The notes below the pieces were generated by a model. That model searched no databases, was not told where the DNA came from, and was given only the letters and a program-made list of their open reading frames with translations. A DNA stretch of 64,000 nt from Spinacia oleracea (lineage: Eukaryota > Streptophyta > Magnoliopsida > Caryophyllales > Amaranthaceae): the NCBI RefSeq assembly GCF_020520425.1, contig NC_079491.1, positions 40,228,027 through 40,292,026 on the forward strand, given 5' to 3'. A program made the translations under genes and the position numbers. Shown in pieces: positions 33,038-63,965 of the stretch. Each line of letters opens with the position of its first letter. The first letter of the stretch is position 1.

Positions 33038-33040
<3 letters not shown>

Positions 33041-33055
33041 CGGGATCCGGTGAGA

Positions 33056-34449
33056 ACCACCCCTTAAGATGAGAACTGAGAACTAATCTCAGTTGTCGAT
33101 CAAATCAATCTAGCGGCTCATATTTCACCCGCTCAAATCATTCATTAAGGGTATTTTGGTAAATATACGGCGCTGAATGACCTCTTTTCTCTCTCCTTCT
33201 GCAAATCCTCTCTCATATCGGGCTTCATCTTCTTCAACTTCGTTGATTCTCGTTGTTCTTGCAAATAACTTCACCTTTTTTTGCGACTTTCTTCCAATTA
33301 ATTTGCCAGGTAAATATTCGATTTTTTGGATTTTGTTTAAGTTTTTGCTATTTTAATTTCTCTCTTCATTCAATTAGAATGCAGTTCTTCGATTTTGCTG
33401 ATTATTTGGTTGTTCTTCGATTTTTATGTTCATGTATTTGATTTGTGTTCAATTAGGTTTTTGAATAATGTTTTGTTCCCTTATTCATGTTCCTTATCTT
33501 CCGTTGACAATTTCGACTGATTTTACAAATTAGGGTTTTGAATTAGTGTTTGTTTGTTTAATTCCGTTAAATTAGTGTTTTCAATTGATTAAGTTTTGTA
33601 TTATTTAAATCTAATGTATATTCGTAAGAGAAATAATTGAGTCATCTTAGCACCACTCTAGAGCCAATGAAGATCTGATATTTAAAAAAGGGAGGATTTC
33701 TTGTATGTTTAAAACCATAAAGAATGGTATGTTTTACTTTGAGTTGGTTTGCTGGGGTCTTTTACATGTTCTTTCTACAGTATGGTTCAGGTAGGGTCTG
33801 CAAATGGTGTGCATTTCATGTTCTGTTGAGTGGCAGCTGCTGGTGGAACAAAAAGTTTTTGAAATCAAGGAAGACTTTGGAAGGGCTCGAGCCTATAAGC
33901 AATGTGGCATGTCTGATCTTGTTCAACAAGCAATATAGAGCTGGTATGGCCACTTTTAAAATGGCTCTGGTGTATTGATTAAAATGATCTTGTTCAACAA
34001 GCAATATAGAGCTAGTATGGCCACTTCACAGAGCTCTCGGTTACAACTCTATGACTTTTTAACTACTCTTCTCCTGCTCATACTTGCATATTACTACGGT
34101 TCTTTTGCTCTCTTTTTTTGGCTTTTGTGAGATTTGAAAGCTGATGTGATTCATACTAGATGCTGTGAATTGATATCTAGTGTAGCAGGTTTGATCAGTC
34201 TAGGTGTGTTGTTGCGTCTGTTTCTGTTCAGTTCAGTTGGCTTAAGAGAGTTATCAGATGTTGAATGTGATTCTTATCAGTTTTAGTTTTGGTATTGTGT
34301 TGGGGCTGGTGTAAACCTGGTTACTTGAGGTTGGTGATACTGATTCAGCAGGTGCTGTCTGGTTTGTTGTATTACCAAAGTTGACTCATTAACTTTGGTA
34401 ATATAAGATTGTGTTACTAATCAATTATTCTTAATTTATGGTCAACACT
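33056..34449. other. Element A left arm
   Basis: Resembles the element B left arm in its subterminal text, including AATGACCTC and TCTCTCTCCT-rich runs. A 40-bp stretch (CTTGTTCAACAAGCAATATAG and neighbours) is repeated in direct orientation at about 33918 and 33989. No convincing coding frame. Confidence 0.5.
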
Positions 34450-34520
34450 AGCCTACTAGCTCAATCGGTAGAGCATTGTGCAAAAGCACAAAAGATGTGG
34501 GTTCGAATCCCACGTAGGTT
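34450..34520 (+). ncRNA. tRNA-like sequence 1 (element A, left)
   Basis: Folds as a cloverleaf: acceptor AGCCTAC/GTAGGTT, D-stem GCTC/GAGC with loop AATCGGTA, anticodon stem TTGTG/CACAA, T-stem GTGGG/CCCAC with loop TTCGAAT. Pol III A box (TAGCTCAATCGG) and B box (GGTTCGAATCC) are intact. The anticodon loop has only 6 nt (CAAAAG) instead of 7, and its outer bases can also pair, leaving 4. The D and T arms look most like tRNA-Lys. TTTT runs follow from about 34549 as possible Pol III terminators. Probably a tRNA-derived module rather than a decoding tRNA. Confidence 0.75.
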
Positions 34521-35176
34521 CATATTTACTTTATGTATTATTGTATTTACTTTTAGGTTAAAAACCTTTACTTTTGACCAATATACTCCAACACTACATT
34601 ATATAAATCCTTTTTGAAAATTTTTTAATTAATTTACTTTTGAAATTTTCTAATTTACTTTTGGGATTTTTTGAATTACTTTTGGGATTTTTTGAGTTAC
34701 TTTTGAATATTTTCATTTACTTATATACTAGATAATGTAGTTCATATCTTAATCGAAACACAATGGTACTAATTCTAAATCGAACAAAACAATAAGAATG
34801 TTTACACGACCTTTAAAAAACAAACCATAACTAGTTTTCTATTTTCATTTACTTTTTGTATTGTTTTATTTACTTTTAACATGAAACCATTTACTTTGGC
34901 ATCCGCCCATATACTTCTAAGTACCAAAAGGAACATAAGGTATCCCGGAGTGAGGTAATGGTAAAATATGGAAAAGCACATAAAGCATCCCAAACTGGTA
35001 TGTGTATTATGGTTCTAGATCTTTATAGTTACTTCAACTTTCCTGATTGATAGTTATTTACTTTCCTGATCATCTAAGTGTTTCCAGTGGTCAAGATCAT
35101 GCTGATGTTGTCAAGGTGATGGATCATTTTCGTTTTCCATGTTCTGTTTGCTTGTGTTAAAGTTTTCGAGGATAAA
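34521..35176. repeat. TTTACTTTTGA-rich segment of element A
   Basis: Many imperfect copies of TTTACTTTTGA/TTTACTTTTGG in the same orientation, at irregular 20-60 bp spacing. The motif recurs at 35810-35960, 36285-36360 and 37480-38000 and throughout element B. Confidence 0.7.
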
Positions 35177-35565
35177 TTGGATGAATCCCAGATTAAAGAA
35201 ACTGAAGTAATGCAGCACAGGCAACTCACTTCCTTCAGATACTTTGCAGTACTCAATCTGTGGCCTTTCTTGACTCGGGTTTTGCTTAGTAGTCGTTGGA
35301 ATGAGCTTTACGAGATGAGGAACAAACAGAACGAGGTGTTGATTCCTAAGATTAGAGCAAGGAATAATGAGAACAACAACACCAACAGGTTGGTCATATG
35401 TTATGCTGATAGCTTGTTGACAGTGGAAATCCCAGATGGTAACAACAACCAGAGAAAGATAACTGAGGAGAAACTTTTGAGTTTTTGTTCTGAATTCCTC
35501 AATGCAGGAACTAATACCACCTTAACAGCATTACGGTGGATTATGGCCAATCTTGTCGAGCAAAA
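35177..35565 (+). pseudogene. Captured cytochrome P450 fragment, CYP89-like
   Basis: The frame 35177-35662 has MDESQIKETE...QHRQL, then LWPFLTRVLLSSRWNELYEMRNKQ, and VLIPKIRAR. LLSFCSEFLNAGTNTT and ALRWIMANLVEQ correspond to the P450 I-helix (A-G-x-x-T-T, here AGTNTT). This order and spacing match the central part of CYP89A-type P450s of about 510 residues. The N-terminal third, the ExxR helix and the heme-binding Cys loop are absent. After about 35565 the frame runs into a His/Gln-rich low-complexity tail. A transposon-carried gene fragment with no function as an enzyme. Confidence 0.75.
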
Positions 35566-35662
35566 GTTTGAAGATCAACAACACCAATGTGCAGATCAAC
35601 AGCACCAACAGAAAAACAACATCGTACAGATCAACGTTGAACAGAACAGACAGCAGCACTAA

Positions 35663-36372
35663 CTGAACAGCACAACAAAGCTTGAACACTCCGGAGCAGT
35701 TCAAACAACCTCACGACCAGGCAACCATGCAGCCGATATTGGTTCAAGAAGGAAGTTACTGCCAAAATCAAGTAGAACCGATATTGGTTCTATTGCTCGA
35801 TGGTTCTTTACTTTTGAAAAAAATTTATTTACTTTTACGAGTTATTTATCTACTTCTAAATTGTAAAGGAAAAGTATATTTTATTTTTATTTCAATTGAT
35901 GACAATGAAATAGAAAACAATTTTAATTTACTTTTGAATCGATTCTATTTACCTTTACGATAGTTTTTTTTGGGTATTCGGACTCGGCTTGCAAGCGGAG
36001 GCAATTGCGTGTCTTAAAGGCCTGAAATGGGTTGCGCTCTAACAGGAAAGTAGCTTCACTTAGGGTTCTTTCGGTCTCGTACCTGCTGGTGGAGATGCTA
36101 AGGGATGAAGGGCTAGTTGATATCAGGCTACTGCAGCATTACCAAAGTTCAAAGGGCTCCAGTACAACGGGCTCACTCTCTCACTACGACAACTTCTGCT
36201 ACTCTTGTTTCTTTTCTAATCCTTTGTAGTTTCTTGTTCTTTAAGCTAACAAAAAGAAACTCCAGTTTAATTTATAATTTGTTTATGAGTTTTTTAATTT
36301 ACTTTTCAGCTTTTTTAATTTACTTTTGAGTTTTTTTAATTTACTTTTTCTTTTTAATATACTTTCATAGAC
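35663..36372. other. Element A centre, no gene
   Basis: TTTACTTTT words, a GATATTGGTTC direct repeat near 35736 and 35779, and AT-rich filler between the P450 fragment and the second tRNA-like sequence. Confidence 0.45.
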
Positions 36373-36443
36373 AACCTATGTAGGAATCGAACCTACATCC
36401 CCTATGCATGTGCATAGTGCTCTACCATTTGAGCTAATAGGTT
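36373..36443 (-). ncRNA. tRNA-like sequence 2 (element A, right, inverted)
   Basis: On the minus strand: acceptor AACCTAT/ATAGGTT (perfect), D-stem GCTC/GAGC, anticodon stem CTATG/CATAG, T-stem GTAGG/CCTAC with loop TTCGATT. Anticodon loop again 6 nt (CACATG). It differs from sequence 1 at paired positions in all three variable stems while keeping pairing, so the fold has been maintained. A and B boxes are intact. It faces sequence 1 across about 1.9 kb. Confidence 0.75.
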
Positions 36444-38640
36444 TAAGAAACACTTAGTAAAGCTAATTAAACACACCTAAACTCCAACACAAAGTCTCGT
36501 CCCCGATTCATTTTGATTGACTCAACACAAAGCATGCGGAGAGCATTCAACACTTCAATATAGTGTCATTTGATTTCTCTTTGCTCTCTCACAAGCAGTT
36601 CTCAACCTCGCAAGTATTTCTTTGCTCTCTCACAAGCAGTTCTCAACCTCGCAAGTGTTTCTTTTCTCTCTCACAAGCTTCTCAACCTCGCAAGAGTGCC
36701 CTAAGATTTCTACAGCGTAGCTACTGCAGCTGCTATTGGCTCCTTTATATAATACAAATGACATTAAGGTATGTTATATCTCCTGCGTCTTTCGTTGTTT
36801 CCAACATGATGAGGCTTGACACCACCATGACTGCATGAACTACACGTTGCCAACAACTCTGAACCAGTCCTATAATTTTGCCAAGCCACCTACACTTAAC
36901 AAATTGCAGCCACAGCTGTTGTTGTCCTGCTGCTAAGTAGGAACAGACCCGCTCACAAAATCTGCACTGCAAACTCAAACCAGAAAAAGAAAAACCACAA
37001 CTCCTAGCCTACTGACATTACACATTGCTTTTGAGACCCAAAAAACATATTACATCAACCTCCTTCCACTTATCAACTTTTAGACAGGTTTTATTTACAT
37101 TGATAGAGATTTAGTTTACTTTATTAGTCATCCATAAAAATGCATAGTACAAACAATTTGTAGTAAGCACTAACAAAAGGAATCATCTAGAATAAATCAG
37201 CTGCCCAGCAGGAATCACAACTAAACACTAGAAGCATACCACCCATACCAACAACAAACTACTATCCAAACATGACGCAGACCGCTACAAAACAAAATAG
37301 CAAGCTACAATAGCTCTGCAACCATTGCAGACCAATAGCAAACTGTGCACCATCCCCTAGTCAACTAAGGTCAACAACTAGCAAGCAGCATGACTGAAAT
37401 CAAAACCAATAGCACAAAGTCAACCCTGGTCAACTTGCTTCACCTGACCTACAAATACCCACCACCAGAACCTGATTATATTTTATCTACTTTTGGATCA
37501 TTTCTATTTACTCTTTTTCAATTACTGAATTCCAACAACTTGTTAGGCTTGAAGCTCAAATTAAAATCACAACATTGAGTAACTAAATTATAAACATAAA
37601 ATGTAACTGAAATAAATTCACAACGTTCACTCATATTCACTTAATTCATTCGCAAAGTCACCAAAATTCAAAAAAAAAGCACAAAAAAATCCTCCACAAA
37701 ATTGACTAAAACCAATTCATTCAGAATTAGGCTACACATTAATCTGATTCACCCACAAAAATTCAAACAATTTGTTCACTTCAGTTTACTTTTAGCGATA
37801 ATGAGTTTACTTCTACCCAATTTTCGCTTACTTCAACACATTTTAATCTAGCTAAATTGATCCACTTCTATCAAGCTTAAATCGATCAGAAATTCAATCA
37901 GATCAATGTTTGAGAAACATATTACAGAAATTTAAAACATAGAAATCTAATTGAACTTTCCTAGATATGTTGTTTACTTTCATAGATATTTTGTTTACTT
38001 TGTAGAACAAATCAGCAGATCCAATCCAAAACCTAATCTAAGCATGATAGAAAATTAAATCAACGAATTTAAGTAGTATTCTAGGCTTTAATCTCAAAAT
38101 CAGTTCGCGAAGTTTCCAAATCCGCACAAAAAATCCGTCCACACAAATTTCTCATGAATTCAATCCAAAGTTCGTTCACACCATCTCTAAAATTCCGCAA
38201 ATTCGAGCTCCAAAATTTCTAAAACAATCAGACCTAGAAAATCAGGTAAAATTTTTCTGGCCTAATTTTAGCTAAAACATAAGAAATTGTGAGTAGTACC
38301 TGATTTAGACATCGAATTCGCAGATGAGGATATTTGAACGTTGCACATCATACTTCGAATTTTCTTCCACGAACTCTAAAATTTTATGAATATCTCGAGT
38401 ATAATTCGATTTTACGAATAATTCGAGTATAATTGCAGCATAAAATTGACAAATTCTACCTATTTTTATGACAGAATTTCTAAAATGTGAAGAAATTGGG
38501 TAGAAAGTTGCGAGAGAATGCAATTTTGTGGAAAGAGAAAGTTGGATACAGTATGAGGATTGAGGGGAGAGAAACATTTGTTTTTTTCAAAAAAAGAGAG
38601 CAGGTTGGATTGTTTTGAGATTTTAATCTCATCCGACGAT
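36444..38640. other. Element A right arm
   Basis: AT-rich, non-coding. A roughly 50-bp unit with TTTGCTCTCTCACAAGCAGTTCTCAACCTCGCAAG-type text (in pieces) is repeated about three times at 36580-36700. TTTACTTTT words continue. The end resembles the element B text around 43320-43560. Confidence 0.5.
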
Positions 38641-38702
38641 TTTTGTTAAATCTAACGGTTCACAAAGGTTCTCATTATAGAGAGGTTCTCACCAGAACCT
38701 GG

Positions 38703-38842
<140 letters not shown>

Positions 38843-38861
38843 CCAGGATCTGGTGAGAACC

Positions 38862-40442
38862 ACCCCTTAAGATGAGAACTGAGAACTAATCTCAGCCTTC
38901 GATCAATTCGATCCAACGGCCCAAGTTCTACCCGACATATGAAAATATTAAGGGTAAATTCGTAATTTTAAAGGTTTGAATGACCTCTCCCTTCTAACCT
39001 GATTCCAGATTTCTTCATCTCTCTTCCTACTATTTTCTCTCTCCTCCTGCAATTCCTTTGGGCTTTTCTCATCTTCCCTCGAGTTCACCGCGTCCTTCGC
39101 ATCCCAACCTTTGAATCTTCTCCTTTATTTAATTTTCGTCAAGTAAGTATTCAATTTATTTTATCTATTATACTTTTGATTCAATCATTTTCAGTTTCGA
39201 TTGTTGTAATTAGGGTTTCAAAAAAATTGTTTAACAATATTCGATTTTAGTGGCTAAAATTAGGGCTTTTCAAATTGCAAATGTTTCTTTAATTAGTTTT
39301 TAATTAATTTTTTTGCGTTTATTTGATTTTTTTTTTCCTCTGAGTTTGCTCGACTTTTGGGCGTTTTAGTTTGTATGTTGAAGAAAAAAATAATAAAATC
39401 TTTATTGTCTAAAATTTGTCGATTGAAGTTTATGCAGTTTATTCCAATTTTTCGAATTGATTTTCTCGAATTCGGGTTTTACTTTTGATTTTCTGGAATA
39501 TGCTTAATTTGCTAGAATTGAGTTGATTTGGTCAGTGGAACAAATTACTGTTAGTCTGTTACTGATTTGAATAAGAACTCGGATATTCTTAAGCTTACAT
39601 GTTCTTAGTTCTTACAGTTTATGATATAGTAGTATATTTTATGTTGGGTGCCTTGAAAATATTCAAACATTCTGATCCTTTTTGCATACATTCACTGTTT
39701 CTATCAGCTAAAATAGCAAATTCTCCCCCTGGTTCTAACTGATAGATATTTTGTGTTGAACCAAAAATCGAAATGATTAATGTAAAATCACCTTAGTAGT
39801 AAAGCTTATTCCTTTTACTTGGAGTAATGTTTAGTCACGAGTTTTGGTATTGTTCAACAAAATGTAGAGATGGATGATATATTTTATCACTTGAATAATT
39901 GATTCAAGCTTTTTGTCACCGGTTGTTTTTGGTTTCAGTCAGTCTGCTCTTCTTGACCATTGATCTTAGGTGACTAGGAGGACTTGTGTCGTTTGGTTGC
40001 AGTGATGGGTTGTATGGTGATTCTGGTCTGTTGATCTAGATGTCTGAATGTGCGTTGGGTCTGAGTTTTGGCCTGTTATTATGACGATTCTGGTCAGGTT
40101 ATTTGTGTTGTGTTTTCAAGTCCAACATTATAAGCTAGTATAGGTGTTGCACATATTGGGGTTAGTCTCAGGTGGCTGCAAGCTATTGTTGCGGGCTGTT
40201 TGTTTTTCAGGGAGGGATTGTTACAGACTTGCGGGTCAGTTAGGGGTGGTATGCTGCCAAGATTGACATCTTGGGCAGCTATTCTACTTTATTTGGTGCT
40301 GCTAAATCTTGTGTGTGTATAATTGCATCAATAACGTTACTGAGCTAATTTTCACAAGTTATTGGGGCCTTCACTTTTGAATTATTTTGATTTACTTTTT
40401 TGGGGTTTTGCTTTACTTTTATTTATTCTATTTAAAAACACT
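38862..40442. other. Element B left arm
   Basis: Shares the first 38+ bp of subterminal text with element A, then diverges. AT-rich with leader-like CT-rich runs, no coding frame. Confidence 0.5.
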
Positions 40443-40512
40443 AGCCTACTAGCTCAATTGGTAGAGCGTTGTGCAAATGCACAAAAGATGTGGGTCGAAT
40501 CCCACGTAGGTT
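40443..40512 (+). ncRNA. tRNA-like sequence 3 (element B, left)
   Basis: Counterpart of sequence 1: acceptor AGCCTAC/GTAGGTT, D-stem GCTC/GAGC with loop AATTGGTA, anticodon stem TTGTG/CACAA with loop CAAATG, T-stem GTGGG/CCCAC. One T is missing from the T-loop (TCGAAT), which also damages the B box. TTTACTTTGAAG and TTTTGAG follow downstream. Confidence 0.7.
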
Positions 40513-41892
40513 CGTTTACTTTGAAGTTTCCTTTATTTACTTTTGAGTCTATATTGTTTACTTTTGACTTTATATTATTTACTTCTTAGATTTTTCAAAT
40601 TACTTCAGAATATTATTGGTTTTTTTGGAGTTGTTTATATCATTTTTACAATTTAAGTTTATTATTTTGTTTGCTTTTAGAAGGATTTAGTTTACTTTTA
40701 GAGCGATTGAGTTTACTTTTGAGCAAACAACCCAGAGCACATATTCACAACATCAAATCACTGCAGCCAGCCACGAGGTTTTCCACCACAGACAATGTTT
40801 GCCACACAATTTCATTCAAGGACACCACCCGAACACAAAAACCTGATCTACTATAGGTTGTTTTATTTACTTTTGAATCAGTTTTATTTACTTTTACGAG
40901 TTCTTTATTTACTTTTGAATTGAACAAAAGGAAAATTGTGACAACCTATTTTAGCGCAAAAAATATTTATCTTTGAATCAAATCGATGAGAAGGAAAGTG
41001 AAAACAGTTTCAGTTTACTTTTGGAACAATAATTTTGTTCTGAGAAAGGTCATGTTGTATCTCTGCCTCTGAGACACAACCTTTGGGTAGAACTGTTGTC
41101 CTCCATTTAAAATACTTTAAGAACATGGTACTCGCCTTCTCCACATTTAGATCACGAGCTCTTAAGAATCTTCTCAATGCCAAGCCATTTACCTCCTGTC
41201 GCGTACATCAGAAACTTCCTTCAGTTCCTTGCAACACATTATTTTTGTGATCTTGATGAGTTATTTAGTTCGACTTAATAGATGTTTTTAGAAATTAAGA
41301 ATGACAATTAGCTAAAGCAGCAGATGCTTTAACGAAATGCTTATTAAAGTTCACGAACTCTTCCTAAGTTAATTTAATATGTGAAATCATGAGCAGTCAT
41401 TGATGTTGAGAAAAGATTAGAGTATGGAAGAGAGAACCTTAGAAGAGGGATCACGGCTTTCAACAAATGCTTGCATCAGGGCGAGTTTATGATGCTCTGT
41501 TGTGTTCTTGTTGTTTTGCGTGCCATTTCTGGCATGATTTGTTTCTGCCATCTTATGTATATGTACCTTTCTCTCTTGTGGGGTGTTCTCTCTGCTAGTC
41601 TGTTGCTGAATGTCAAGGACAACAACAAACCATAACACCAACAGAAGCAATCAAAGCACATGATAGAAACAGCAGCTTAGTAAGCAAATCTGGTTGCAAC
41701 TTCAGCTGATTGACTGTAGTACCAAGTCAATATGAGTCAACTTGTGCAATTGCAAGTTGCCAGAACAGTGCGAGATACTTTTATTTACTTTTGAATTTTT
41801 TTGTATTTTACTTTACTTTTATTTTATTCTTTTTACAAAACTTTACATAGAAATTATAAATGGTTATCCACCATTCTAGATTTAAATACTAT
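40513..41892. repeat. Element B centre with TTTACTTTTGA words
   Basis: Repeated TTTACTTTTGA (40520-40590, 40680-40725, 40865-41020, 41775-41830) around unassigned text. No coding frame recognised; 40725-40860 and 41040-41700 hold low-information, intron-like sequence. Confidence 0.6.
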
Positions 41893-41962
41893 GACCTATG
41901 TAGGATTTGAACCTACATCCATATGCAATTGCACATTGCTCTACCATTTGAGCTAATAGGTT
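41893..41962 (-). ncRNA. tRNA-like sequence 4 (element B, right, inverted)
   Basis: Counterpart of sequence 2 on the minus strand: acceptor AACCTAT/ATAGGTC, D-stem GCTC/GAGC with loop AAATGGTA, anticodon stem ATGTG/CATAT (one G-U pair), 6-nt loop CAATTG, T-stem GTAGG/CCTAC with loop TTCAAAT. The fold is kept despite changes relative to sequence 2. It faces sequence 3 across about 1.4 kb. Confidence 0.7.
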
Positions 41963-43847
41963 TTCACAAAATATTTAAGAGAAATGTATATTTGAAAGTT
42001 TCATTATTATTTAGTTCACTTTTAGAGATATTTTGTTTACTTTTGAGGAGATTTGGTCTACTTACGCACAATTTAGTTACTTTATTTATTTGTGTCAACT
42101 CACCATATTCATTATCAAAAATTAAAGGCAAAAACTCAGATCGCAACTACTAAAAACTTATTAGATAAAATCTCTGAGTGAATCACAAAAACGCATAATA
42201 CAAACAATTTATAGCAAGAACTATTTAAAGGTTTAATCATCTAGTGATTCTTTAAGAGATATTAAGTTTACTTTTGTACAATTTTCATTTACTTAAAGTC
42301 TATAATGTAGCACCCCTAACTGATTTAGTTTTCTTTTAAAGAAAATTAGTTTACTTTAAGAAAGATTCGTTTACTTTTGTACAATTTTCATTTACTTCAT
42401 GTCTATAATCTAGCAACCCCTAACTGACTTAGAGTTCTTTTGAAGAGAGTTAGTTCACTTTAAGAGATATTAAATTTACTTCTGTACAATTTTCATTTAC
42501 TTCGCTCTATAATATAGCTAGCAACCCCTAACTGGCTAACAACCTGCAACAACAACAACCCAATCACAACACCCTAAGACATACTGCAAGATTTGAACCT
42601 GAACCCTGCAGCAGACCAAGCCAAAACCAACTGCTAAAATGCATCAACATATTGTATACGACAACAGCCTGCATCACTCTCAAATGACTACAACAAGAAG
42701 GAGCTAGAACAAGCCTCTGAAATAGTTAGTTTACTTTAAGAGACATTAGGGTTACTTTTGTGCAATTTTTATTTACTTTAACACATTTTTAGTCTCTGTA
42801 ACAGTTAGTTTAATAATATAAATAAAAACAGGAAGCAGAAGCACCAATTCTTGTTTCTAGCAGGGTTAGCAATATGCTGCACAAATCATGGCATGTTTTA
42901 GAACTTAACCAACACAATATACAGATTATATTGTACAAGTAAATATAATTAAACATAAGCAAAGAGGATCTCAACAGACCTTGTATAGAGGAATTTCTTA
43001 ATAAGCTCTTCAAATAGCATGGCTGCCAAGACTGCATTTACGCTGCTTGCTATATTAATTCGCCTTAGGACGTGATCAAGTACAAAATTGACCAGATTGA
43101 AAGCTCTGATGAAGATTTATCCATGATGTGTCATCCTTCTCTCTACTAATATCTAGATGATAGGAATAATGTACTTTTTAGTTTACTTTAAGAAATTGGG
43201 AGTAAATTAACCAAATTAAGAAACGTATCCATGCTTAATTTGGACTGAATTTACAACATCAAGCCGAAATTGATTCAATCAATATGCAAAGATCAAAGCA
43301 AATTTATCAATGAAAATTAGAGAAATTAAAAACCTAGAAATCTAATTCAATCAAATTAGCAAGTAATACCTGCGTCCGAGATCAACTTCTCAGATCATGA
43401 AGAATTCAGCGCCGCCGCATAATTCGATTTTGCAAAAAATGCGACTGAATTTGTAACTTAATATATACAAAAATATCAAATTTGAGACCAAATTTCTGAA
43501 ATTATGAAGCAAAATGAAGAGTAAGAAATTGCAAACGAAGAGTGAGTAATTTGTAGGAATTTGAGCCAAATTCGCAGACAACTGAGTTTATTTTCAAGCA
43601 AATTCAACAAAAAATTCAATTAAAGGAACAAAATCAAAAGAAATCGAAAGAAGAATGTAAAATACCTCAAAATCTCTACAATCTTTGCGAAAATACGACA
43701 TAATTTGCGGTTTTTCAAGTGCATTTCAAGCAAATTCGTTGAGGAGGGAGATGAGGAGAGAGAAAATGTCAGTTCAATAAGGAGGGAGTGAGGGAACCGC
43801 ATCTAGTTCAATCAGGAGGGAGATTCATTTAATTCGCCAGATGTGAC
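41963..43847. other. Element B right arm
   Basis: TTTACTTTT/TCACTTTAAGAG words to about 42780, with a repeated block TTTGTACAATTTTCATTTACTT (in shorter words) at about 42270, 42376 and 42484. Then AT-rich text resembling the element A right arm. Interrupted at about 43848 by CACTA-2 and resuming at 63858. Confidence 0.5.
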
Positions 43848-44285
43848 GCTTTTTGGGACAAATTGTGACGCTCTACAGTGTCGCTATTTCACATAGCGAC
43901 GCTTTGGGAGAGGGTCGCTATTTTCATTGCCGCTATTTACCGACGCTTTAGAGCGTCACAATTTGCAAAATATCGACATATTTCTCCGTCGCTATTTGGG
44001 ATATAGTGACTCTATAGAGAGTCGCAATATTTAGACTGTATAAAGAGTCACTATTTGCACGTGTATAGACACATTTTTCCGCCACTATAAACCACATAGA
44101 GACGCTTTAGACACCCGAAATATATAGACTCTTATTAGAGTCACTATATGTTCACTTTCGTGCGAGGTCCCCCATTCCCTCCAAAATAATTTAGACCCTT
44201 TGGAGCGTCACAATTTGCATCATATTATTTTTCATATATACATAATAATTTAGACGCTTTGGAGCGTCACAATTTGCATCATATT
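43848..44285. repeat. CACTA-2 left subterminal inverted repeats
   Basis: Repeated GTCGCTATTT, GACGCTTTAGAGCGTCACAATTT-like (in shorter words) and AGAGTCACTAT motifs in both orientations. The same GACGCTTTAGA/GCGTCGCAATTT words occur at 63705-63830. A 63-bp stretch with TTTGGAGCGTCACAATTTGC is repeated at 44195 and 44255. Confidence 0.85.
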
Positions 44286-44287
44286 TT

Positions 44288-44330
<43 letters not shown>

Positions 44331-44910
44331 TAATCTAAAATCATGAATTATCTATAAAAATATATATCGACCATAGATAATTAATCATAATCAAATACAT
44401 TAACTTACTACGTACGTACACTATATATCTTAAAGCAACATATTAACTTGCTATGATTCATATATACTTAAGTAGTTAATTTAGGAAAAGTGATAAAAAT
44501 CATCTATACATTAAATTAATTCGCAGAGTCTAGTCAAACTGAAATAAAAGCGATATTTTAAAACAAAAACAACTTTCTAACTAGCATTATCATTTTTTCT
44601 ACAAGATAGTCCAAAACTAAATAAAAACAACTTCCTGACTACGAACAAGTAAACATATCGTTATGCTAGCTTAGCTTCAAGATAACTTGTTCATCTCTTG
44701 ATCTACATTTACTATTACCACTTGAATCATCAATAATCTGCAAAGAAAATTTAATGTCAAATATAGTATGATGAACATTCCATAATATCAAGGGAAAATT
44801 AACAGTAATCCTAACCAGCTTGATCCTAACTACTAGTCGTCTTCTCAAAATAATATCAACTATTAATCAAGGGAAAAATGCATGACTATTAGAAATATAG
44901 ACATGAACAA

Positions 44911-44980
<70 letters not shown>

Positions 44981-45264
44981 GTAAATTAGTTAACTTAATT
45001 ACCAAAGGTAGAAACCCAAACAACAACCAACAGAAAACAACAAGGGAAACAAAAGCTAAGGGAGCACAGCCCGCACCCAAGCAAAAACAAAAAACACTAA
45101 AACATTCTACAACGACACCAGCCAAACTCGCAAAATTTGAGTTATAAAAGGTCATTTTTTACAAATTTGCAATGCTTGTATAATAACACTTTAAACATTA
45201 ACATTTGATTTTTGCCTTGTTTTTTCCCTGTATGAATTAAAGGTTAGTTCCTACTTCCTAATCA
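44286..45264. other. CACTA-2 left interior with two (TA)n runs
   Basis: (TA)n at about 44296-44323 and 44914-44974. Otherwise AT-rich with no coding frame. Confidence 0.45.
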
Positions 45265-45603
45265 ATGGCGAAGAGACAAAAGTTAAAAGTGCTAAGTGTA
45301 CTTGACGTAGCAAAGACACAATGGTACCACTTGAAAGTTTTCATGATTCTTGGTATGGGCTTCTTTACTAATGTCTATGAGCTTTTCTCCATATCTGTGG
45401 TGACCAAAATCTTAGGCCGTCTCTATTACACTGAGCCAAATCCAACTAGCCCAGGGTTTATACCCATGAATGTGGCCTTGTGTGGTACCTTTGCTGGGCA
45501 ACTCATCTTTGGGTGGTTAGGTGACAAGTTAGGAAGGAAAAAGGTATATAGTCTTACCTTAGTCATAATGGCTTTCTTATCCTTAGCCTCTGATGTTCAT
45601 TAA
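45265..45603 (+). pseudogene. Captured 5' exon piece of a PHT1 phosphate transporter gene
   Basis: The ATG at 45265 opens 112 codons: [25 protein letters not shown], then [16 protein letters not shown]. These are the N-terminus and first two membrane segments of PHT1 proton/phosphate symporters, including the GDKLGR loop of the major facilitator family. In the family these motifs start near residue 10 and the protein is about 530 residues. Here it breaks off near residue 107 into unrelated CAG-rich sequence, and the usual acidic Asp of the FFTDAYDLF motif is Asn. A fragment carried by CACTA-2, antisense to its genes. Confidence 0.85.
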
Positions 45604-46179
45604 CTTGCTGCTTAAACTGTCACTTTCTTTAATTAGCAGGCTTGCCCATTTGAAAACCAAAAAAAAAAAAAAAACAAGACACCAGCCCAACAAGCTACAC
45701 AGCAGAACCAGACTGAACAACACAAGGTTTGCACAAAAGAACTGCACAACAGCAAGCCAGCCTGAGCAGAACAGTATGCCTGACTGACTGCAAACCTGCA
45801 AAACTATGCAACACCAAGACTGAGCAGTAGCAGCAGCTACAACAGCAGGACCTCAAGAACTTTCAGTTTTCAGATTCAGTAGCAGTAGCAGGACCTCAAC
45901 ATCAGGACCTCAACAACAGTAGCAGTAGCAGCAGATTCAGTTTTCTCATGTTATCAAAGCTGTAGATTCTTAATCTTTCGAGTTTAGTTCCTCTTGTCAG
46001 TTATAGATTTAGATTAAGACCCCAAGAACTTTCTTTTTTCCTTTGATATAATATTCAGGCGTGATGAGAAGCAAAGCAAGTGATGCTTACAAGTACAATA
46101 GCTAAAGAATTCGTACTTGGTATTCATTTATTGGTAATTGGTATTCATTTCTTATGATTTTCTTTTTACTGGTGATTTT
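45604..46179. other. CACTA-2 interior, CAG-rich then AT-rich
   Basis: Low-complexity AGCAGCAG/ACAACA text at about 45660-45940. No recognisable gene. Confidence 0.4.
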
Positions 46180-46611
46180 AGATGGATGAGGAAATGCTAG
46201 AGGAGGAAGTTGGGGAAACAGAAGAAGAGACAAGTACCAAGAATATGTGGGAAAGTGTGGAAACTCTCACTAAATATTATAAGGAGGCTGTTTAACTGGG
46301 GATTATCAGACCATTACAGAATAGAGATCGCTGTTTACCGACTAGAAACAGAAAAGAACGAGTTGGTTGAGAAATTATCAACTTTGACAGAAGAGATAAC
46401 TTCTGGAAAGGATAGATTTATCCGCCTGCAAGCTGACTTTGATAACTTTAGAAGGAGATCAGGTAAAGAGAGACTATCAGTTCGAAGCGATGCACAGGGA
46501 GAAGTAATTGAGAGTCTTCTTCCAATGGTGGACAACTTTGAGAGGGCGAAGCAACAGTTACAACCAGAAACGGATAAGGAAAAACAGATTGATACGATTT
46601 TTCTAAGATAG
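46180..46611 (+). pseudogene. Captured GrpE (organellar co-chaperone) gene fragment
   Basis: First an acidic stretch with ESVETLTKYYKEAV (about 46182-46295), then after a frameshift near 46295 the frame carries RLETEKNELVEKL, DRFIRLQADFDNFRRR and GEVIESLLPMVDNFERAKQQL. This is the long coiled-coil and dimer region of GrpE, the nucleotide exchange factor of Hsp70, in the form seen in plant chloroplast GrpE. The C-terminal beta domain is missing after about 46605. Fragment only, antisense to the CACTA-2 genes. Confidence 0.82.
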
Positions 46612-47244
46612 TACTATGAGTGAACAGACCAAAAACGAAACAGACTATAGAAGTCAATCAAACAGAAAACAAGCTTATACTATGAGCAATTTCTATGGAA
46701 ACTAAAACTTTTTATAGTAGTTGATTTCAGACTTATCTCTCACTCATGGTCAGAGTTCGAATGAGGTTTTATCAGGTGAGTAAGTCGGAGTCGCTGCTGT
46801 CTTGGATTGACATTTAACACTGTGTTTTCTTTACGCGTTACAGAAGGAGCATCATAAATTAACTAACAGAAACCATAGTTTGTTAACAACCCAGACCTAA
46901 CACCAAACTCGTGTTTCAGCTAATATCAACATAATACCTTATTATGATAATACTAAATCTAAACATCTACCTTCTAATCTCACCATCATCCATAAATAAT
47001 CGACAACTATAAAGCTTGTTTCAGCTATAAGTTTATCTATAAAGCATGAAATGCAGTTAATTAATTCCATATGAAATTACCTTGCATTTGGCAATAGTGT
47101 CAAAGTCTCATTTCTCGGCCTGGTTGTCACCATTGCCACCAGAATCATCAGTAATCTATAAAAAGCATTTTAATATGTAAATTAGATATGCCACATTTCA
47201 GGTAATGATACATGATGCTCAATCAGAATACTTTCCAGAAATAA
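46612..47244. other. CACTA-2 interior between the GrpE fragment and the TNPA-like gene
   Basis: AT-rich. May contain the 3' end of the TNPA-like transcript. No gene seen. Confidence 0.4.
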
Positions 47245-50200
47245 CTAACCATATTTATTGCTGATTCCGCACCATCTAAAAGGTTCGATGAAACATTCCC
47301 TTTGCGTACTTCCTTCAAAATTAACTTGTCCCAAAAAAGAAGCAATCATTTTAAATGATTGTGTTGTTTCTTCAAACTTGGTGTTTAGAACTTGATTTTG
47401 TTGCGCAAGGTCCTCATTTTGCTTCTTGACAACTGATATTTCACCTTTCATGTTCTCCACTTCCATAGCATTGTTGTTAACATAGCTTGACCCTTCTTTC
47501 CTCAGCAAACCTTCCACTCCAAAGATGTCGCTTTGCTTCACTCCAAATCCATAATTCAGAGGACGTTTAGGTACTTCACCTTTATACATGAGCTCATTAA
47601 AGACTGCATTCTCAATTTCAATTACGGGCTTTGAAGAAGAGGAACTCGCAAGATTTTCTTGGACCTTTTTGTTGGCATCCTCCTGTTATATAATATGAAA
47701 AGATCACTCAAAATCTATTAACCAAGAATACTATGTACAAGCAAAGAAAAAAATAAATAGACTTCAAGAGACAAGATTGATTTATAGAATTAGCTCAATG
47801 CAATGATACCACAAATTGATGAGGAAGTGTGCCCTCTTTAAAGCTTCCATCTTCTTTGGCGTAAACTGATTTGAAAAATGCCAATTCGCTAAACACTCCT
47901 TTCTTCTCTTTCTGCAATTTCAGGAAAAAAATAAATTGAAAACTGAAATTTTGAAGTTCTTAAACCGACTATCACTATATTTGTTTAACACTTTGAGTTG
48001 TTATCCCCGTAGTAGGGTTGCTGGGTGCAGTGCCACTTTGCAAGGGGTGACAGAGTCGGCAACAGAGGCAGTGACATCAGCAAGCTCTCTGCTAATTGTG
48101 TCAGGCTAAGGGGAATTAAGGAGTACGTTTCCTTGTAGATGCAGGGAAGATAATAAACAGAAGAAATATCAGCCAATAGTTGCTTTATACCTGTATTCAG
48201 TTTGTTTTGTTTCTGTAACAAGTGGCAAATATTAGTTCTAGTTATTAAGATATTAGGTAAATAAGTTTTTGCAAACTTGTTTGCAGGTACATTTTCTTTG
48301 CATTGTTTTTAGTTTATCTTACATGATCCAATAATTAAAATCAATATGGACATTGATGAATCCCATGATCCCAGCTGGCCTCTATGCTTTTGACAGAGGA
48401 CTAACAGATAATCTATCGATTCTTATAATCTGATAATGTAAACATTCACAGATAATTTGACTACTAAGTGAGTAAATAAAATGAAAACCCAGACCAATTG
48501 GACGACTTCGACGCTGTCCCACGGGCACCATAGGGTTCCGATTTCCCCTCATAAGAAGGAGAAGGAGAAGGAAAAGCCTAACTCTTTGAAGGTTGTGAGG
48601 GCAGAGCCGAAGGCAGAGTCGAATACCGATGCTAAGAGTGGAGTTCAGAAGTTTAGGGTCAAGCTGTTGCCTGAAAGTGGTGGCCAAGAGTGTCATGGAT
48701 GTTCTCTGTATGGTATGTTGTTCTTGCAGCCGTTTACATATGTTTTATTCTGTTATTGTTGTGTTTATTGATTTTGGCTTCTGTATATCCTTTAGCGAGC
48801 TTGGATTTCCTGTTGGTTTTCAGTTCTAGAACAATGTATTGTCATCATGAAGGGGATTAGAATTTCCTGGAACATATATGGTTTCCTGAATGAATACTTT
48901 ATTGGTTTCGAGTCAGATGTTTGGGAAAGAACTGGATTAGTTGGTTGTTAACTTTTTATGTCAGCTAGAATTTAGCTAAATTAGTGAGTTTTAGTGCTGA
49001 ATGGCTTGATCAATTATCAAAAGTTCTAGAACAATGTATGTCATCATGAAGGGGATTAGAATTTCCTGGAACATATATGGTTTGCTGAATGAATACTTAA
49101 TTGGTTTCGAGTGAGATGTTTAGGAAAGAACCATATTAGTTAGTTGGTTGTTAACTTTTGATGTCAGCTAGAATTTAGCTAAATTAGTGAGTTTTAGTGC
49201 TGAATGGCTTGACCAATTATCAAAAACTCATTTTAAAGGATCAAAGACATTATTTCGGGAATAAATTATATGGTGGACTGGTGGTGGTGAGGTGAAGCTT
49301 TGTTATTTTGGTTGAAATGTTAATAGAGAAAGGAATGTTGTTGGTTGTTTGTTGATTGGATAGGTTTGAATTTGTGTAATTGATTTACTCTTGAATTAGT
49401 CATGTTTAGGCTGTTGTGCTTGATTAATCTCAAATTAGAAATAATAATGGTGTTGATTTGCAACATTTGCAGCTCACAAGGCCGCACTTCACATCATCTC
49501 TAATTTTATTTACATTATGCTATGCTCTTATTAATGCTGGTTTTGATGTCTCGGCCTTACTTCAATAGCTGGGAATATCATCAACTGAAACAAGTGAGAA
49601 AGTTGGGACATTTTCACTTGCATATGCAGCTCACAAGGCCGCATCTCCGATAAAGTTTCTGCCTACAGTTGCCCTAACTCCATTGTTGCTTCCTGGATTT
49701 CAAGAAAGTAGATAAAGATAACTAATCCCAGAATATATGACTACTCTGTATATGACTTTTCTTCCATTTGTGTAATACCAGAATATGTTATTGGATACGT
49801 AGCAGAATCAACTCTTTGTCATTTCATTGTGAATTTGCATTTTAGTGTGTTCAGAGCAAATGCAAGAACCATTAATTGCTGGCCTATCTCAAACATAGAT
49901 CTCCATAATAATTTATCTGTTAATAGCTACTTACTTGATCTGTTCTCACTAAGACCAACAATGTAATTTACAGGCTACACCTACAGACTAACAGCTAAAC
50001 ATGTTTCGTTCACAATTAATTGATTATCATTGCAGGGTTTTTGTTGTAAAAATGCAGATCGAATAATGATTAGTTATGCTTAATTATGCATAATTTTTAT
50101 TCTTTGTTATTGACTTTTAGTTAGAACTTTGTGAACAATTTTTTATCGCCTGAAGTTTATGGGGATAATGTAATAGAATGAAATACTGCCTTTGTTGTTT

Positions 50201-52799
50201 AAATTGAATAGTTTTTGCAGCTTCATGCACTGCAGATGGACTTCATTGCCTCTGCTTTCTGATTTTTTCTACTTTAAACTTGGAGTAGCCACGCACACCC
50301 GCTCCCATCCCCAGACCACCCTCCAGAATCATACTTCTTAGTTCCTGTTAAAAGTTGACTCTATTTGACAGTAATAGTGTCAGGTAACCCCGTTTCCTGA
50401 TCCTAAAAGCTCTAAGTTCATGAGAATCTAGGACAACTATCTCCAAAACGTTTGAAGAGTCACATAATGTATACTTCTGCAACATGGTTTATAACAGAAA
50501 CGGAAAGTAGGAAGATTTTCCCAGCTGCTGCTTTCAATTCCATTTGCCCGCATAGCCAACTTTTCTACATTTCTCTACTTTAACATTAGAAAACTAAAGA
50601 ATGTCCTTATGTGTGAGATTAGATATGCATATACGAGTAAATATTACTCTTATTTGTTTATGAATTTTAGACTTTTATATCACTCTTATTTGTTTATGAA
50701 TTTTAGACTTAGCACCTATAGCAATTGAAATGCTACAAACCAAATAGCTAGGTTGAAAAGCATACCATATCAACTCTTCGATTAGCAAAGCTTGTAGCAC
50801 CACTGTTGTGCTTATTGCCTTGTAAAGCTCGAGCATTTTTTCCCATTTCAGATTTTTCCTAGTTTCATGAAACCAATGTTAGCATATATAGGTGAAACAA
50901 ATAAAACTTACTAAATTTAGGATATTTTGGGGTCACAAACCATGGCCTCTGGTAAAAGCCAATAATCTACCAATTCCGTCCAACTCCTAGTGGACACTCC
51001 ATCAGGCACGTTGGCATAGTTCTCTTCTCGAGATTTATTCACTGGATCGAAAAAATCCCTCTTCAATTTGTATCGATGATTGTTCCATGGTTTGTCAATA
51101 CGCATCACTAGTGCCTTGTTAACTAGAGGTCCATCAGGTAACACAAAATGTTTCTTCAAAAAAAAAAGGAAAAATTAAGTTACAATGTTAACAAAATAAT
51201 TTGCCTAGCTAGTTCTGATCAGATCAGATCAGACTGATCTGTCTGATCTGATCAGCACTGATCTGATCAGAACTAGCTAGGTGAACTTAGTGATTCTGCA
51301 GAAACTTAACCCGGGGTCGGAACCCCCATGACCAAATAAAAACCTGAAAAATGGGCAACTGATTGATGAACACAGATGGAAACAGAATAAATTTAAAGCT
51401 AATTACACAGTTAACCAAGCTAAAATAAAACTACAATTAACATAAGTGTTAAGAACAATAAATCCACATACCCGAATCATTGTAACAACATTAGTTTTTA
51501 ACTGATTGTTCACAGCACGCCAACTTGGGACTCCCACTGGACAAAGTGAATCATTTTTTGCAATATCTCCAAGGAAGCTCACAAGGATCTTCCCACCTTT
51601 TCGAATAGGTTGGTTGAATTCATTGAGCTTGACAATGTATCTGAACCCCTTTGCATCATGCCAAACGTCTCGAGGCAGAACTGGTCCCTTTACCAGATGT
51701 CGTATTCCATCAGCATCTGTCACAGGAGCTAAATCAGACTAAAAAATCACCAAGATCGATAATTTACAGTTTGCATATTTGATGTAGAGACATGTTTACC
51801 TATAGCTATAGCCTCCACCTTCTCATCAAACTCCCTCGATTCTGGCCAATTTGGAATAATGATTCGATGTCGAAGTGTTGCTTTCTTCACAGCAGTATCA
51901 CTTCCTTCTCCTTGATCAAATTCATTTTCACTCTCAGAAGCCGATTCTTCAAATTCGTCCCAGTTGTAGTTTGGCATAACTTCACTCTCAACCTGATTGG
52001 ATGGAGGAGATCGCAGAGGTTGAAATGCATTCTCACTCACATGCATGTATGTTGGAGGCAACTGACCTTCTTGCTTCCCGGTTCTCTTTTTCATTGCCAT
52101 GGTGTCTGGTGGTGTAGGAGATTGTGACATCACATGTTTTGTTGCTCCCAAAGGTGCAACAAATGCTCTTTTCTCTAAATGTGGTTTGACACTTGTAAAA
52201 GAAGATACCGGCTGTTGTGTAGCTTTTTGAGGCTGTTGTGTAGCTTTGTGAAGCTGATGGGTAGCTTTTTGAGGCTGATTGGTAGTTGTTTGAGGCTGTT
52301 GGGAAGCTTTGAAAGGCTGCAAAGAAGGCTGCAAGGTAGCTTTGAAAGGCTGCAACACAGGCTGCATAGTAGGCTGGTGTGGATTCGGTGTTGACGCTTT
52401 TTGTGTTGCAATTTCAGTCAGATTGGGAAACGTAGGTCCTTTATACCATCTACTTTGTGTTGTTCCTGTAAGAGTGGGCGGAATTGGTTGTTGTAATGGG
52501 TTAGAGGATGGTTTTGTCTGGGTAAAGGATGGTTTTGATAATGCCTTCAGTTGTGGCTTTGAAACCATGGAAGTAGGCCGAGGCAAGGATGATTGTGGTG
52601 CAACCATGGTTTTTTTAGCAGCTACTGGTTGCTTAATGGGTTGTGATACCGTCCCAAATGTCTGTGACACTCCAAGTGTTGGAGGACTGAACGGTCCCCA
52701 GTTTTGGGTGGATGGATCAGAAGATTTTGGGGACTTGGATGCAGCAATGCTCGACCCTTCGTCAATAGCTACCAATGTTCTTTTAGTCCTGTAACTCAT
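47245..52799 (-). CDS. CACTA TNPA-like second protein (Transposase_24 type), six predicted exons
   Basis: In CACTA elements this class of protein is thought to bind subterminal repeats and assist the TNP2 transposase. Predicted exons on the minus strand are 52799-51800, 51728-51472, 51153-50941, 50858-50766, 47911-47810 and 47682-47245. Introns have GT..AG ends and phase is kept throughout, giving 2103 bp and about 700 residues without an internal stop. Exon 1 is Pro/Gln/Thr/Lys-rich, with repeated KATQQPQKATQ units (about residues 150-215) and an acidic tail. Exons 2-4 hold the conserved core: LVKGPVLPRDVW, KHFVLPDGPLVNKALV, then GNKHNSGATSFANRR. The last exon has a coiled coil (EVENMKGEISVVKKQNEDL). 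Exons 4 and 5 are 2.85 kb apart because a DUF1279 gene piece sits in that intron. Lies downstream of TNP2 on the same strand. Confidence 0.82.
48481..49714 (+). pseudogene. Captured DUF1279 (FAM210-like) protein gene piece inside a TNPA intron
   Basis: The 3' exon at about 49472-49714 follows a TTTGCAG acceptor. It reads LTRPHFTSSLILFTLCYALINAGFDVSALLQ in part, then LGISSTETSEKVGTFSLAYAAH and KAASPIKFLPTVALTPLLL, and stops at 49712-49714. The pattern matches DUF1279 proteins, small organellar membrane proteins of uncertain role. An upstream Lys/Glu-rich frame at 48481-48710 ending at a GTATG donor may be the 5' exon; that link is inferred from position only. The sequence is antisense to the TNPA-like gene and would be removed with its intron. 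Confidence 0.6.
48823..49225. repeat. 200-bp tandem direct duplication
   Basis: The block starting GTTCTAGAACAATGTAT at 48823 and the next at 49023 are near-identical over about 200 bp, both ending GGCTTGA-CAATTATCAAAA. It lies in the captured intron between the two DUF1279-gene pieces. Confidence 0.88.
49715..50765. other. Remainder of the large TNPA-like intron
   Basis: AT-rich, no coding frame. Part may be 3' flanking sequence brought in with the DUF1279 gene piece. A direct repeat CACTCTTATTTGTTTATGAATTTTAGACTT (in shorter words) occurs at about 50646 and 50682. Confidence 0.4.
51210..51285. repeat. GATCAG palindrome cluster in a TNPA-like intron
   Basis: CTAGCTAGTTCTGATCAGATC...CTGATCAGAACTAGCTAG (quoted in parts) forms a long near-perfect hairpin between exons 2 and 3. 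The same CTGATCAG word is amplified at 60160-60420 and 61085-61225. Confidence 0.8.
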
Positions 52800-53564: not shown

Positions 53565-53702
53565 CAGAGATACTTGAAATTTGAAGAATCTGCAGGTGAC
53601 CCTGCGCGTGTTCAGATTCTATATGAACGTGCTATCACTGAGTTTCCTATATCTAGTGATTTGTGGACTGACTATGCACGCTGTATAGAAAAGAAGCTCA
53701 AG
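53565..53702 (+). pseudogene. Captured exon of a SART3-like HAT-repeat splicing protein gene
   Basis: The exon is bounded by a TTTCTGCAG acceptor and an AAG|GTACTTTC donor and reads RYLKFEESAGDPARVQILYE, then RAITEFPISSDLWTDYAR. These are half-a-TPR (HAT) repeats as in SART3/Prp24-type U4/U6 recycling factors. Only one exon is present, with intron text on both sides, so genomic rather than reverse-transcribed sequence was captured. It lies antisense between the TNPA-like and TNP2 genes. Confidence 0.78.
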
Positions 53703-63690: not shown

Positions 63691-63699
63691 CACGTGTCT

Positions 63700-63952: not shown

Positions 63953-63965
63953 TATATATATATAT

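What the first reader, a model, noticed from the sequence alone, without database searches (positions are those of the whole stretch)
34450..41962. Conserved convergent pairs of tRNA-like cloverleaves inside two DNA transposons
Elements A and B each hold one tRNA-like sequence on the left (+) and one on the right (-), facing each other across 1.4-1.9 kb. Left copies resemble left copies and right copies resemble right copies, so the pair predates the split of the two elements. Left and right types differ at paired positions in acceptor (C-G to T-A), T-stem (G-C to A-T) and anticodon stem, yet pairing is kept. That is covariation, which argues for selection on an RNA fold. A and B boxes of Pol III promoters are intact in three of the four. 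A TIR transposon with a built-in inward pair of Pol III modules is not a layout I know as a described system. Possible roles (inference): transcription of the interior from both sides, RNase P/Z cleavage sites that trim element transcripts, chromatin insulation, or mimicry that recruits tRNA-binding factors.
Basis: partly seen in the sequence, partly recalled or inferred. Interest (0 to 1): 0.88.

Follow-up and report, generated by a model that had tools for sequence, protein, structure and literature searches.

The report
Paired tRNA mimics in plant transposons
A family of gene-carrying plant DNA transposons carries two inward-facing tRNA look-alikes that cannot read codons but whose RNA fold seems to have been kept by evolution, which suggests the mobile element uses the cell's tRNA machinery for something other than making protein.

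Summary
Elements A (33038-38704) and B (38841 to about 63953, split by a nested transposon) each hold a left tRNA-like (+) and a right one (-) facing each other. The window lies in an 894-Mb plant genome (probably spinach, recalled), where this is a large family: 262 exact right-type cores (control 0), and opposed partners in 19 of 20 left-sampled and 20 of 26 right-sampled loci. Of 74 exact right TIRs, 28 have an exact right-type core inward in the correct orientation (0 inverted; 0.15 expected). The fold looks selected: eight two-sided pair-keeping changes on a tree versus about 0.9 expected (0 of 3000 nulls reach it), and pair-breaking changes sit mostly on terminal branches. The tRNA elbow bases are nearly invariant, but the anticodon arm is a 6-bp stem with a 4-nt loop, so they cannot decode. 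The hosts look like microsatellite-targeting, gene-capturing Mutator-like elements; that class is likely, not proven (no transposase of the family seen). Best mechanism (inferred): the mimics are processed like tRNAs out of inward transcripts, keeping convergent transcripts from overlapping. No expression data were available. It is a new variant of a known kind, with a module I did not find described.

The parts
33038..38704 (+). Element A (MULE-like Pack-type transposon), flanked by (TA)n/(AT)n
   Evidence: TIRs at both ends, (AT)n on both sides
33038..33058 (+). A left TIR, AATCGGGATCCGGTGAGAACC type
38684..38704 (-). A right TIR, GACCAGGTTCTGGTGAGAACC (157 exact copies in the genome)
34450..34521 (+). 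Left tRNA mimic L_A
36372..36443 (-). Right tRNA mimic R_A (R1 type)
34546..37793 (+). A: 13 TTTACTTTT words, partly in 21-bp tandem arrays, all on the + strand
35120..35662 (+). A cargo: ORF with a cytochrome P450 gene fragment, between the two mimics
   Evidence: Pfam PF00067 E 1.8e-12
38841..63953 (+). Element B, interrupted from about 43.84 kb (judged by eye) to about 63.857 kb by a CACTA-type insertion
   Evidence: left TIR 38841; 63858-63952 resembles A's right end at 76-87%; sequence read; tnp2 transposase inside
38841..38861 (+). B left TIR
63933..63953 (-). B right TIR (1 mismatch), next to (TA)n
40443..40513 (+). Left tRNA mimic L_B (one T lost in the T loop; B box broken)
41892..41962 (-). 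Right tRNA mimic R_B
39478..42378 (+). B: 16 TTTACTTTT words, + strand only
41010..41207 (-). B cargo: ORF with a CRAL/TRIO N-terminal gene fragment, between the two mimics
   Evidence: Pfam PF03765 E 3.8e-5, 24.2 bits, cut-off 23
38705..38840 (.). (AT)68 tract between A and B (insertion target)

Best explanation
SHOWN: a large family of TIR transposons, many at (AT)n microsatellites and several carrying host gene fragments, keeps two inward-facing tRNA mimics besides its ends. They have a cloverleaf, an intact elbow and mostly intact Pol III boxes, but no anticodon loop. The pattern of changes indicates selection on the RNA fold in the lineages that propagate. INFERRED (mechanism): each mimic lies in sense orientation to transcripts entering from its nearer end, whether made from its own A/B boxes by Pol III or read in from the terminal arm by Pol II, and is recognised and cut by the host tRNA enzymes (RNase P and RNase Z). 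Cutting both inward transcripts at L and at R before they reach each other separates the two arms' transcripts from the centre and limits double-stranded RNA and siRNA over the element. It therefore works like a tRNA-processing boundary. It is not a decoding tRNA.
For: Opposed partner in 19 of 20 L-sampled loci (18 full-length, 1 split by an insert) and in 20 of 26 R-sampled loci within about 2.3 kb (2 of them lacking the anticodon arm). 28 of 74 exact right TIRs have an exact R core inward on the same strand within 14 kb, 0 inward on the wrong strand, 0.15 expected. In partner copies not chosen by their own similarity (21 L, 19 R), in pairs with an alignable flank, mimic p-distance is 0.083 versus 0.210 upstream and 0.081 versus 0.219 downstream for L, 0.101 versus 0.250 and 0.095 versus 0.185 for R. 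97.6% of 1258 pair cells are canonical in 58 distinct copies (shuffled 93.3), with 72 two-sided cells versus 23.9 shuffled. Eight two-sided pair-keeping events on the tree versus mean 0.92, max 5, in 3000 nulls; internal branches 6 two-sided, 7 one-sided kept, 4 broken; terminal 2, 17, 19; 7 events without my gap shift, 0 of 2000 nulls reach it. The pair at positions 2:71 is G.U in 25 of 58 distinct copies, a wobble that suits RNA better than DNA pairing. Elbow bases U8, A14, A15, G19, T55, C56, A58 in 90 of 90 copies, G18 in 88. T4 within 15 nt after L in 32 of 41 versus 0.31 control. Both terminal arms begin with pyrimidine-rich, leader-like sequence.
Against: No expression, Pol III or cleavage data exist here. 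Most R copies lack a near T4 terminator (13 of 49 within 15 nt, control 0.14; 28 of 49 beyond 100 nt, control 0.42), so independent Pol III genes are less likely on the right. Two R-sampled L copies lack the whole anticodon arm, and six rows carry U.U at pair 2:71. 1 of 20 L-sampled, 6 of 26 R-sampled and 2 of 4 TIR-sampled loci show no partner or mimic in the stretch read, and 46 of 74 exact right TIRs have no exact R core within 14 kb, so the pair may not be needed by every copy. The per-pair R-scape-like test gives only 2 of 22 pairs at E<0.05 and none after correction over all column pairs; one two-sided change on the tree breaks its pair. The 12 weakest of 102 model matches (under about 60 bits) were left out, which favours constraint.
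Confidence: 0.35

Rival explanations
1. TFIIIC/Pol III DNA element: the A and B boxes act as promoter, roadblock or insulator (tDNA boundary); the RNA fold is secondary.
For: A box in 85 of 90 and B box in 84 of 90 copies; T4 soon after L.
Against: Stem pairs outside the boxes (acceptor 1, 2, 4, 7; anticodon arm 27, 29) change on both sides and stay paired; box binding alone does not need that.
Confidence: 0.25
2. The mimics act in RNA in another way, e.g. as tRNA-like export or long-distance mobility signals, or as decoys for tRNA-binding enzymes.
For: Elbow and acceptor-T stack kept while the anticodon is lost; tRNA-like structures are named as mobile signals in plants (PMC8166872, start of abstract seen).
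Against: No direct support; copy number and the two-sided, inward layout are not explained by export of one RNA.
Confidence: 0.15
3. DNA-level recombination or transposition signal: L and R are conserved junctions at which arms and centre are exchanged between copies.
For: 97 of 485 alignment ends fall at a same-type mimic in both loci versus 14.9 by length; clear cases: L021 versus L024-L026 share the centre (98.4-98.8% over 431 bp) from 9 bp before L with unrelated left flanks; L019 versus L027 share 3117 bp at 97% that ends 26 bp past R.
Against: Counts are inflated by related loci and by the mimics simply being the most conserved stretch; intact elbow and wobble pairs point to RNA.
Confidence: 0.12
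4. Passengers: a tRNA (pseudo)gene captured once, duplicated to both sides, and now neutral.
For: Gene capture occurs in these elements; extra interior copies are visibly decayed (28-46 bits).
Against: Partner copies differ about half as much as their flanks or less and are compensated on internal branches; the decayed interior copies show what neutrality looks like.
Confidence: 0.08
5. SINE insertions (tRNA-derived retroposons) that landed in the elements.
For: A/B boxes.
Against: Facing pair in fixed order, full 3' acceptor strand, no shared body or tail behind it, flanks largely unrelated between copies.
Confidence: 0.01

Closest known systems
MuTAnT, TAFT and Micron: plant transposons targeting (TA)n microsatellites (PMC4486113, passages and outline seen)
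   Same: Insertion inside long (TA)n tracts; TIRs of similar length (theirs 47 bp on average, here about 40 by eye); many non-autonomous copies
   Different: TIR sequence differs (their mask GGGGTTTGCTAGAACA); 90% of theirs are 200-300 bp; the word tRNA does not occur in the main text
Pack-MULEs / Pack-TYPE elements (PMC8903248, passages seen)
   Same: Non-autonomous TIR elements carrying host gene fragments
   Different: 0 occurrences of tRNA in the main text; here two conserved mimics divide the element into left arm, centre and right arm
VANDAL MULEs and their VANC-bound motif arrays (PMC5735166 and PMC13317346, passages seen)
   Same: Dense short motifs in one orientation, in tandem repeats of non-coding sequence, as TTTACTTTT in A and B
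   Different: VANDALs are called non-TIR MULEs; 0 occurrences of tRNA in either text; no binding tested here
tRNA genes and tRNA-derived SINEs
   Same: Cloverleaf, elbow, A and B boxes
   Different: No 7-nt anticodon loop; built into a TIR element as a facing pair
MALAT1/NEAT1 tRNA-like 3' ends (recalled)
   Same: A non-decoding tRNA-like cut out of a longer transcript by RNase P and Z would be the same principle
   Different: Animal lncRNAs; no homology claimed

Membership tests
Mutator-like element (MULE) | Terminal inverted repeats | tested here: met
   Imperfect TIR of about 40 bp at both ends
Mutator-like element (MULE) | 9-11 bp target-site duplication | tested here: inconclusive
   Flanks are (AT)n, so a duplication cannot be read
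Mutator-like element (MULE) | mudrA-type transposase in a related autonomous copy | tested here: inconclusive
   None recognised by eye among ORFs of 130 aa or more in 20 loci (no family scan of all); genome search with PF10551 did not complete. One TIR-sampled locus (L057) has a 279-aa ORF with a Plant mobile domain match below the cut-off (E 6.3e-4, 19.5 bits, cut-off 34.9)
Pack-TYPE / Pack-MULE | Host gene fragments between TIRs, no transposase | tested here: met
   P450 fragment in A, CRAL_TRIO_N fragment in B; aspartyl-protease fragment in L019, receptor ligand-binding fragment in L020
(TA)n-targeting transposons | Insertion in (TA)n tracts | tested here: met
   A and B; several other loci, not all
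Functional decoding tRNA gene | 7-nt anticodon loop with U33 and a triplet | tested here: not met
   Four letters in the loop columns of 88 of 90 copies, arm missing in 2 (alignment fitted to the model)
Functional decoding tRNA gene | Cloverleaf and elbow bases | tested here: met
SINE | tRNA head followed by body and tail, dispersed singly | tested here: not met
   Facing pair inside TIR elements; full acceptor stem; flanks largely unrelated
VANDAL (VANC-responsive) | Non-TIR MULE with same-orientation motif arrays bound by VANC | tested here: inconclusive
   Arrays in A and B (29 + to 0 -) and + excess in 18 of 20 L-sampled loci, but TIRs exist, TIR-sampled loci are mixed and binding is not testable
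RNase P/RNase Z substrate | Cleavage at the acceptor borders | not testable with these tools
   No RNA data

The most novel reading that the evidence does not exclude
A DNA transposon family has a pair of anticodon-less tRNA mimics as core cis elements: two host-processed RNA boundaries that split a copy into left arm, cargo and right arm, stop inward transcripts from overlapping (evading siRNA silencing), and at the same time act as fixed joints at which arms and cargo are exchanged between copies.
Probability: 0.2. Interest if true: 0.92.

Novelty: new variant of a known kind. Interest (0 to 1): 0.78.

Why it matters
RNA-level selection on a cis element of a cut-and-paste transposon is unexpected, because such elements are thought to need only their ends. 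Here a fold that cannot decode is kept in a family of hundreds of copies while the sequence around it differs strongly between copies and includes captured genes. If the mimics are cut by RNase P and Z, this would be a host-powered way for a transposon to control its own convergent transcripts, directly testable with small-RNA and tRNA-seq data. It also warns that tRNA gene counts in this genome may be inflated by non-decoding calls (inference).

Tried and rejected
SINE origin: rejected (no shared body or tail, facing pair, largely unrelated flanks). Chance tRNA hits: rejected. L and R as captures of two different tRNA genes: disfavoured, because both share the same shortened 16-nt anticodon arm. 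Independent Pol III genes with own terminators on both sides: supported for L (32 of 41 with T4 within 15 nt), weak for R (13 of 49) (types were called by acceptor letters, and about two L copies were counted as R). Mosaic-junction count (97 of 485 versus 14.9): kept only as support because related loci and short alignments inflate it. Per-pair R-scape-like covariation: underpowered (2 of 22). Strand polarity of TTTACTTTT as a rule of the family: not upheld in the TIR-sampled loci, where L055 has 5 + and 4 -, L057 4 and 4, and L056 15 on the strand opposite to the one expected. Search of viral contigs for a mimic core: 0. Literature: ten searches showed no described TIR transposon with built-in tRNA-like pairs in their listings; the listings were capped (for example 12 of 115 papers), and the library lacks most subscription journals and preprints.

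Limits: the 20 L-sampled loci are ranks 2-21 of 40 listed matches (606 first-look candidates); the 26 R-sampled loci are 26 of 40 listed (932 candidates; left out were the window, two loci already fetched and the last 11 rows). Both sets are chosen for similarity. Some loci are near-identical copies (L024-L026; L030, L034, L037 and L043 share the R end). The 12 weakest of 102 model matches were dropped. In one search the last 26 of 100 listed TIRs were dropped because the R list ended at C3:102.6 Mb. Genome-wide counts of L, positions of the PMD-like protein and of PF10551 could not be obtained: four of the many genome-search requests were answered.
Full report
WHAT IS THERE. Four tRNA-likes lie at the stated coordinates and no others were found in the window. 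Each folds with four helices in cloverleaf order. All four have the same departure from a tRNA: the anticodon arm is a 6-bp stem with a 4-nt loop, so there is no anticodon. Element A runs from 33038 to 38704 between (TA)23 and (AT)68; B starts at 38841 right after the same (AT)68. B has no right end near its right mimic. A terminal piece resembling A's right end (76-87%) lies at 63858-63953, next to another (TA)n. Between them lies a CACTA-type insertion: its ORF at 56020-58797 is a tnp2 transposase (PF02992, E 1.4e-82), and the piece just before 63858 ends in TGTAGTG (CACTA ends recalled). That the terminal piece belongs to B is my inference. Between the mimics A carries a cytochrome P450 fragment and B a CRAL/TRIO fragment.

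GENOME-WIDE. The window is G000:C5:40228027-40292026 of an 894-Mb genome with six large contigs among those seen; I take it to be spinach (recalled, not confirmed by a tool). A search with L gave 606 first-look candidates, 40 scored, 96-100% identical; a search with R gave 932, 40 scored. An exact R core occurs 262 times and an exact right TIR 157 times; reversed controls give 0. In 20 loci sampled by L, 18 have a full-length opposed R, one (L013) has an R split by an insert, one (L016) has none within about 8 kb; the gap between facing copies is 320-3710 bp. In 26 loci sampled by R, 20 have an opposed L within about 2.3 kb. In four loci sampled by the right TIR, two have a correctly oriented R within 3 kb. 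From positions alone, 28 of 74 right TIRs have an R core inward on the same strand within 14 kb (27 distinct R), none inward on the opposite strand, and 0.15 are expected. The arrangement is therefore a real, ordered part of the family, although not seen in every copy.

AGE AND SUBTYPES. Right copies fall into at least four types (R1-R4, my grouping) that differ at paired positions. L014 and L028, with R3, end at (AT)n with a visibly diverged terminal sequence, so the pair predates that split. Extra interior copies in several loci are decayed (28-46 bits) and serve as an internal contrast.

SELECTION ON THE FOLD. In copies not chosen by their own similarity (21 L, 19 R), the mimic differs less than its flanks: L 0.083 versus 0.210 upstream and 0.081 versus 0.219 downstream; R 0.101 versus 0.250 and 0.095 versus 0.185 (pairs with an alignable flank). 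On the 90-copy alignment (58 distinct), 97.6% of pair cells are canonical against 93.3% in shuffles, 7 of 22 pairs have two-sided changes, and 72 cells have two-sided changes against 23.9. On a tree, eight two-sided changes keep a canonical pair; the null that moves substitutions among stem sites gives 0.92 on average and at most 5 in 3000 trials. One further two-sided change breaks its pair. Pair-breaking one-sided changes are few on internal branches (4, against 13 pair-keeping changes) and frequent on terminal branches (19 against 19), the pattern expected if the fold is selected in propagating lineages and decays after insertion. Without my one-column gap shift the count is 7 (null mean 0.83, max 5, 0 of 2000). 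Against this, the per-pair R-scape-like test finds only two of 22 pairs at E<0.05, and none after correction over all column pairs, because there are few independent events. The tree is built from 72 columns and is rough, the alignment was fitted to the structure, and the 12 weakest of 102 matches were left out. The G.U at pair 2:71 (25 of 58 distinct copies) and the near-invariant elbow bases point to RNA rather than a DNA hairpin.

OTHER ANATOMY. Both terminal arms start with a conserved TIR followed by pyrimidine-rich leader-like sequence, which suggests inward Pol II promoters (inference). The word TTTACTTTT occurs 29 times on the + strand of A and B, never on their - strand, and its complement once elsewhere in the window; 18 of 20 L-sampled loci also show an excess on the L strand, but the four TIR-sampled loci are mixed and one (L056) is opposite to expectation. 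Such arrays resemble the same-orientation motif arrays bound by VANC proteins in VANDAL transposons (PMC5735166, passages), which is a lead only. L is followed by a T4 within 15 nt in 32 of 41 copies (control 0.31), R in 13 of 49 (control 0.14). Captured gene pieces are not confined to the centre: L019 has an aspartyl-protease fragment in its left arm (PF14541 E 5.2e-21) and L020 a receptor ligand-binding fragment to the right of R (PF01094 E 4.8e-9).

MECHANISM. The fold, not only the Pol III boxes, is kept; the anticodon is lost while elbow and acceptor-T stack stay. That is the part of a tRNA read by RNase P, RNase Z and export factors (established knowledge, recalled). Each mimic lies in sense to transcripts entering from its nearer end. 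I therefore think the mimics are cut out of inward transcripts and so separate the two arms' transcripts from the centre. This step is inferred. TFIIIC-based boundary function is the main rival. Alignment ends gather at the mimics (97 of 485 versus 14.9) with two clear cases of arm exchange (L021 versus L024-L026 at L; L019 versus L027 at R), so the mimics may also serve as joints for module exchange.

CLASS. The host looks like a Pack-type, MULE-like, (TA)n-targeting element. TIR and captured genes are met; target duplication cannot be read in (AT)n; no transposase of the family was seen, and the search for one did not complete. A TIR-sampled locus (L057) encodes a 279-aa ORF with a Plant mobile domain match below the cut-off, a domain that I recall from MULE genes.

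NOVELTY. Ten literature searches in the open-access library (calls listed in Tried and rejected) returned no TIR transposon with built-in tRNA-like pairs in their capped listings; the word tRNA does not occur in the held main texts of the nearest papers (PMC4486113, PMC8903248, PMC13317346, PMC5735166), of which I saw passages. This is not proof of absence from the literature.

Noticed in passing
34546-42378: TTTACTTTT words, partly in 21-bp tandem arrays, on one strand only within A and B; resemble same-orientation VANC-binding motif arrays of VANDAL transposons; polarity is mixed in four TIR-sampled loci.
   Followed up: partly
43840-63857: CACTA-type transposon nested in element B; tnp2 transposase ORF at 56020-58797 - (PF02992 E 1.4e-82).
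   Followed up: partly
L057 (G000:C2:54811480-54814480): 279-aa ORF with a sub-threshold Plant mobile domain match just inside an exact right TIR; candidate gene of an autonomous relative.
   Followed up: partly
L033:1101-1160, L042:1109-1168, L058:2674-2733: Left mimics lacking the anticodon arm but keeping acceptor, D and T arms.
   Followed up: no
L019:8274-8735, L019:7199-7657, L020:3167-3586: Gene pieces in the left arm (aspartyl protease), the centre (no Pfam match) and to the right of R (receptor ligand-binding region): capture is not confined to one compartment.
   Followed up: partly
L056: Right-TIR locus with 15 TTTACTTTT words in about 440 bp, (AT)n at 896-943, no tRNA mimic in 3 kb: possible short derivative.
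   Followed up: no
4214-5726: Tandem array with a 160-bp unit (9.4 copies), unrelated to the finding.
   Followed up: no
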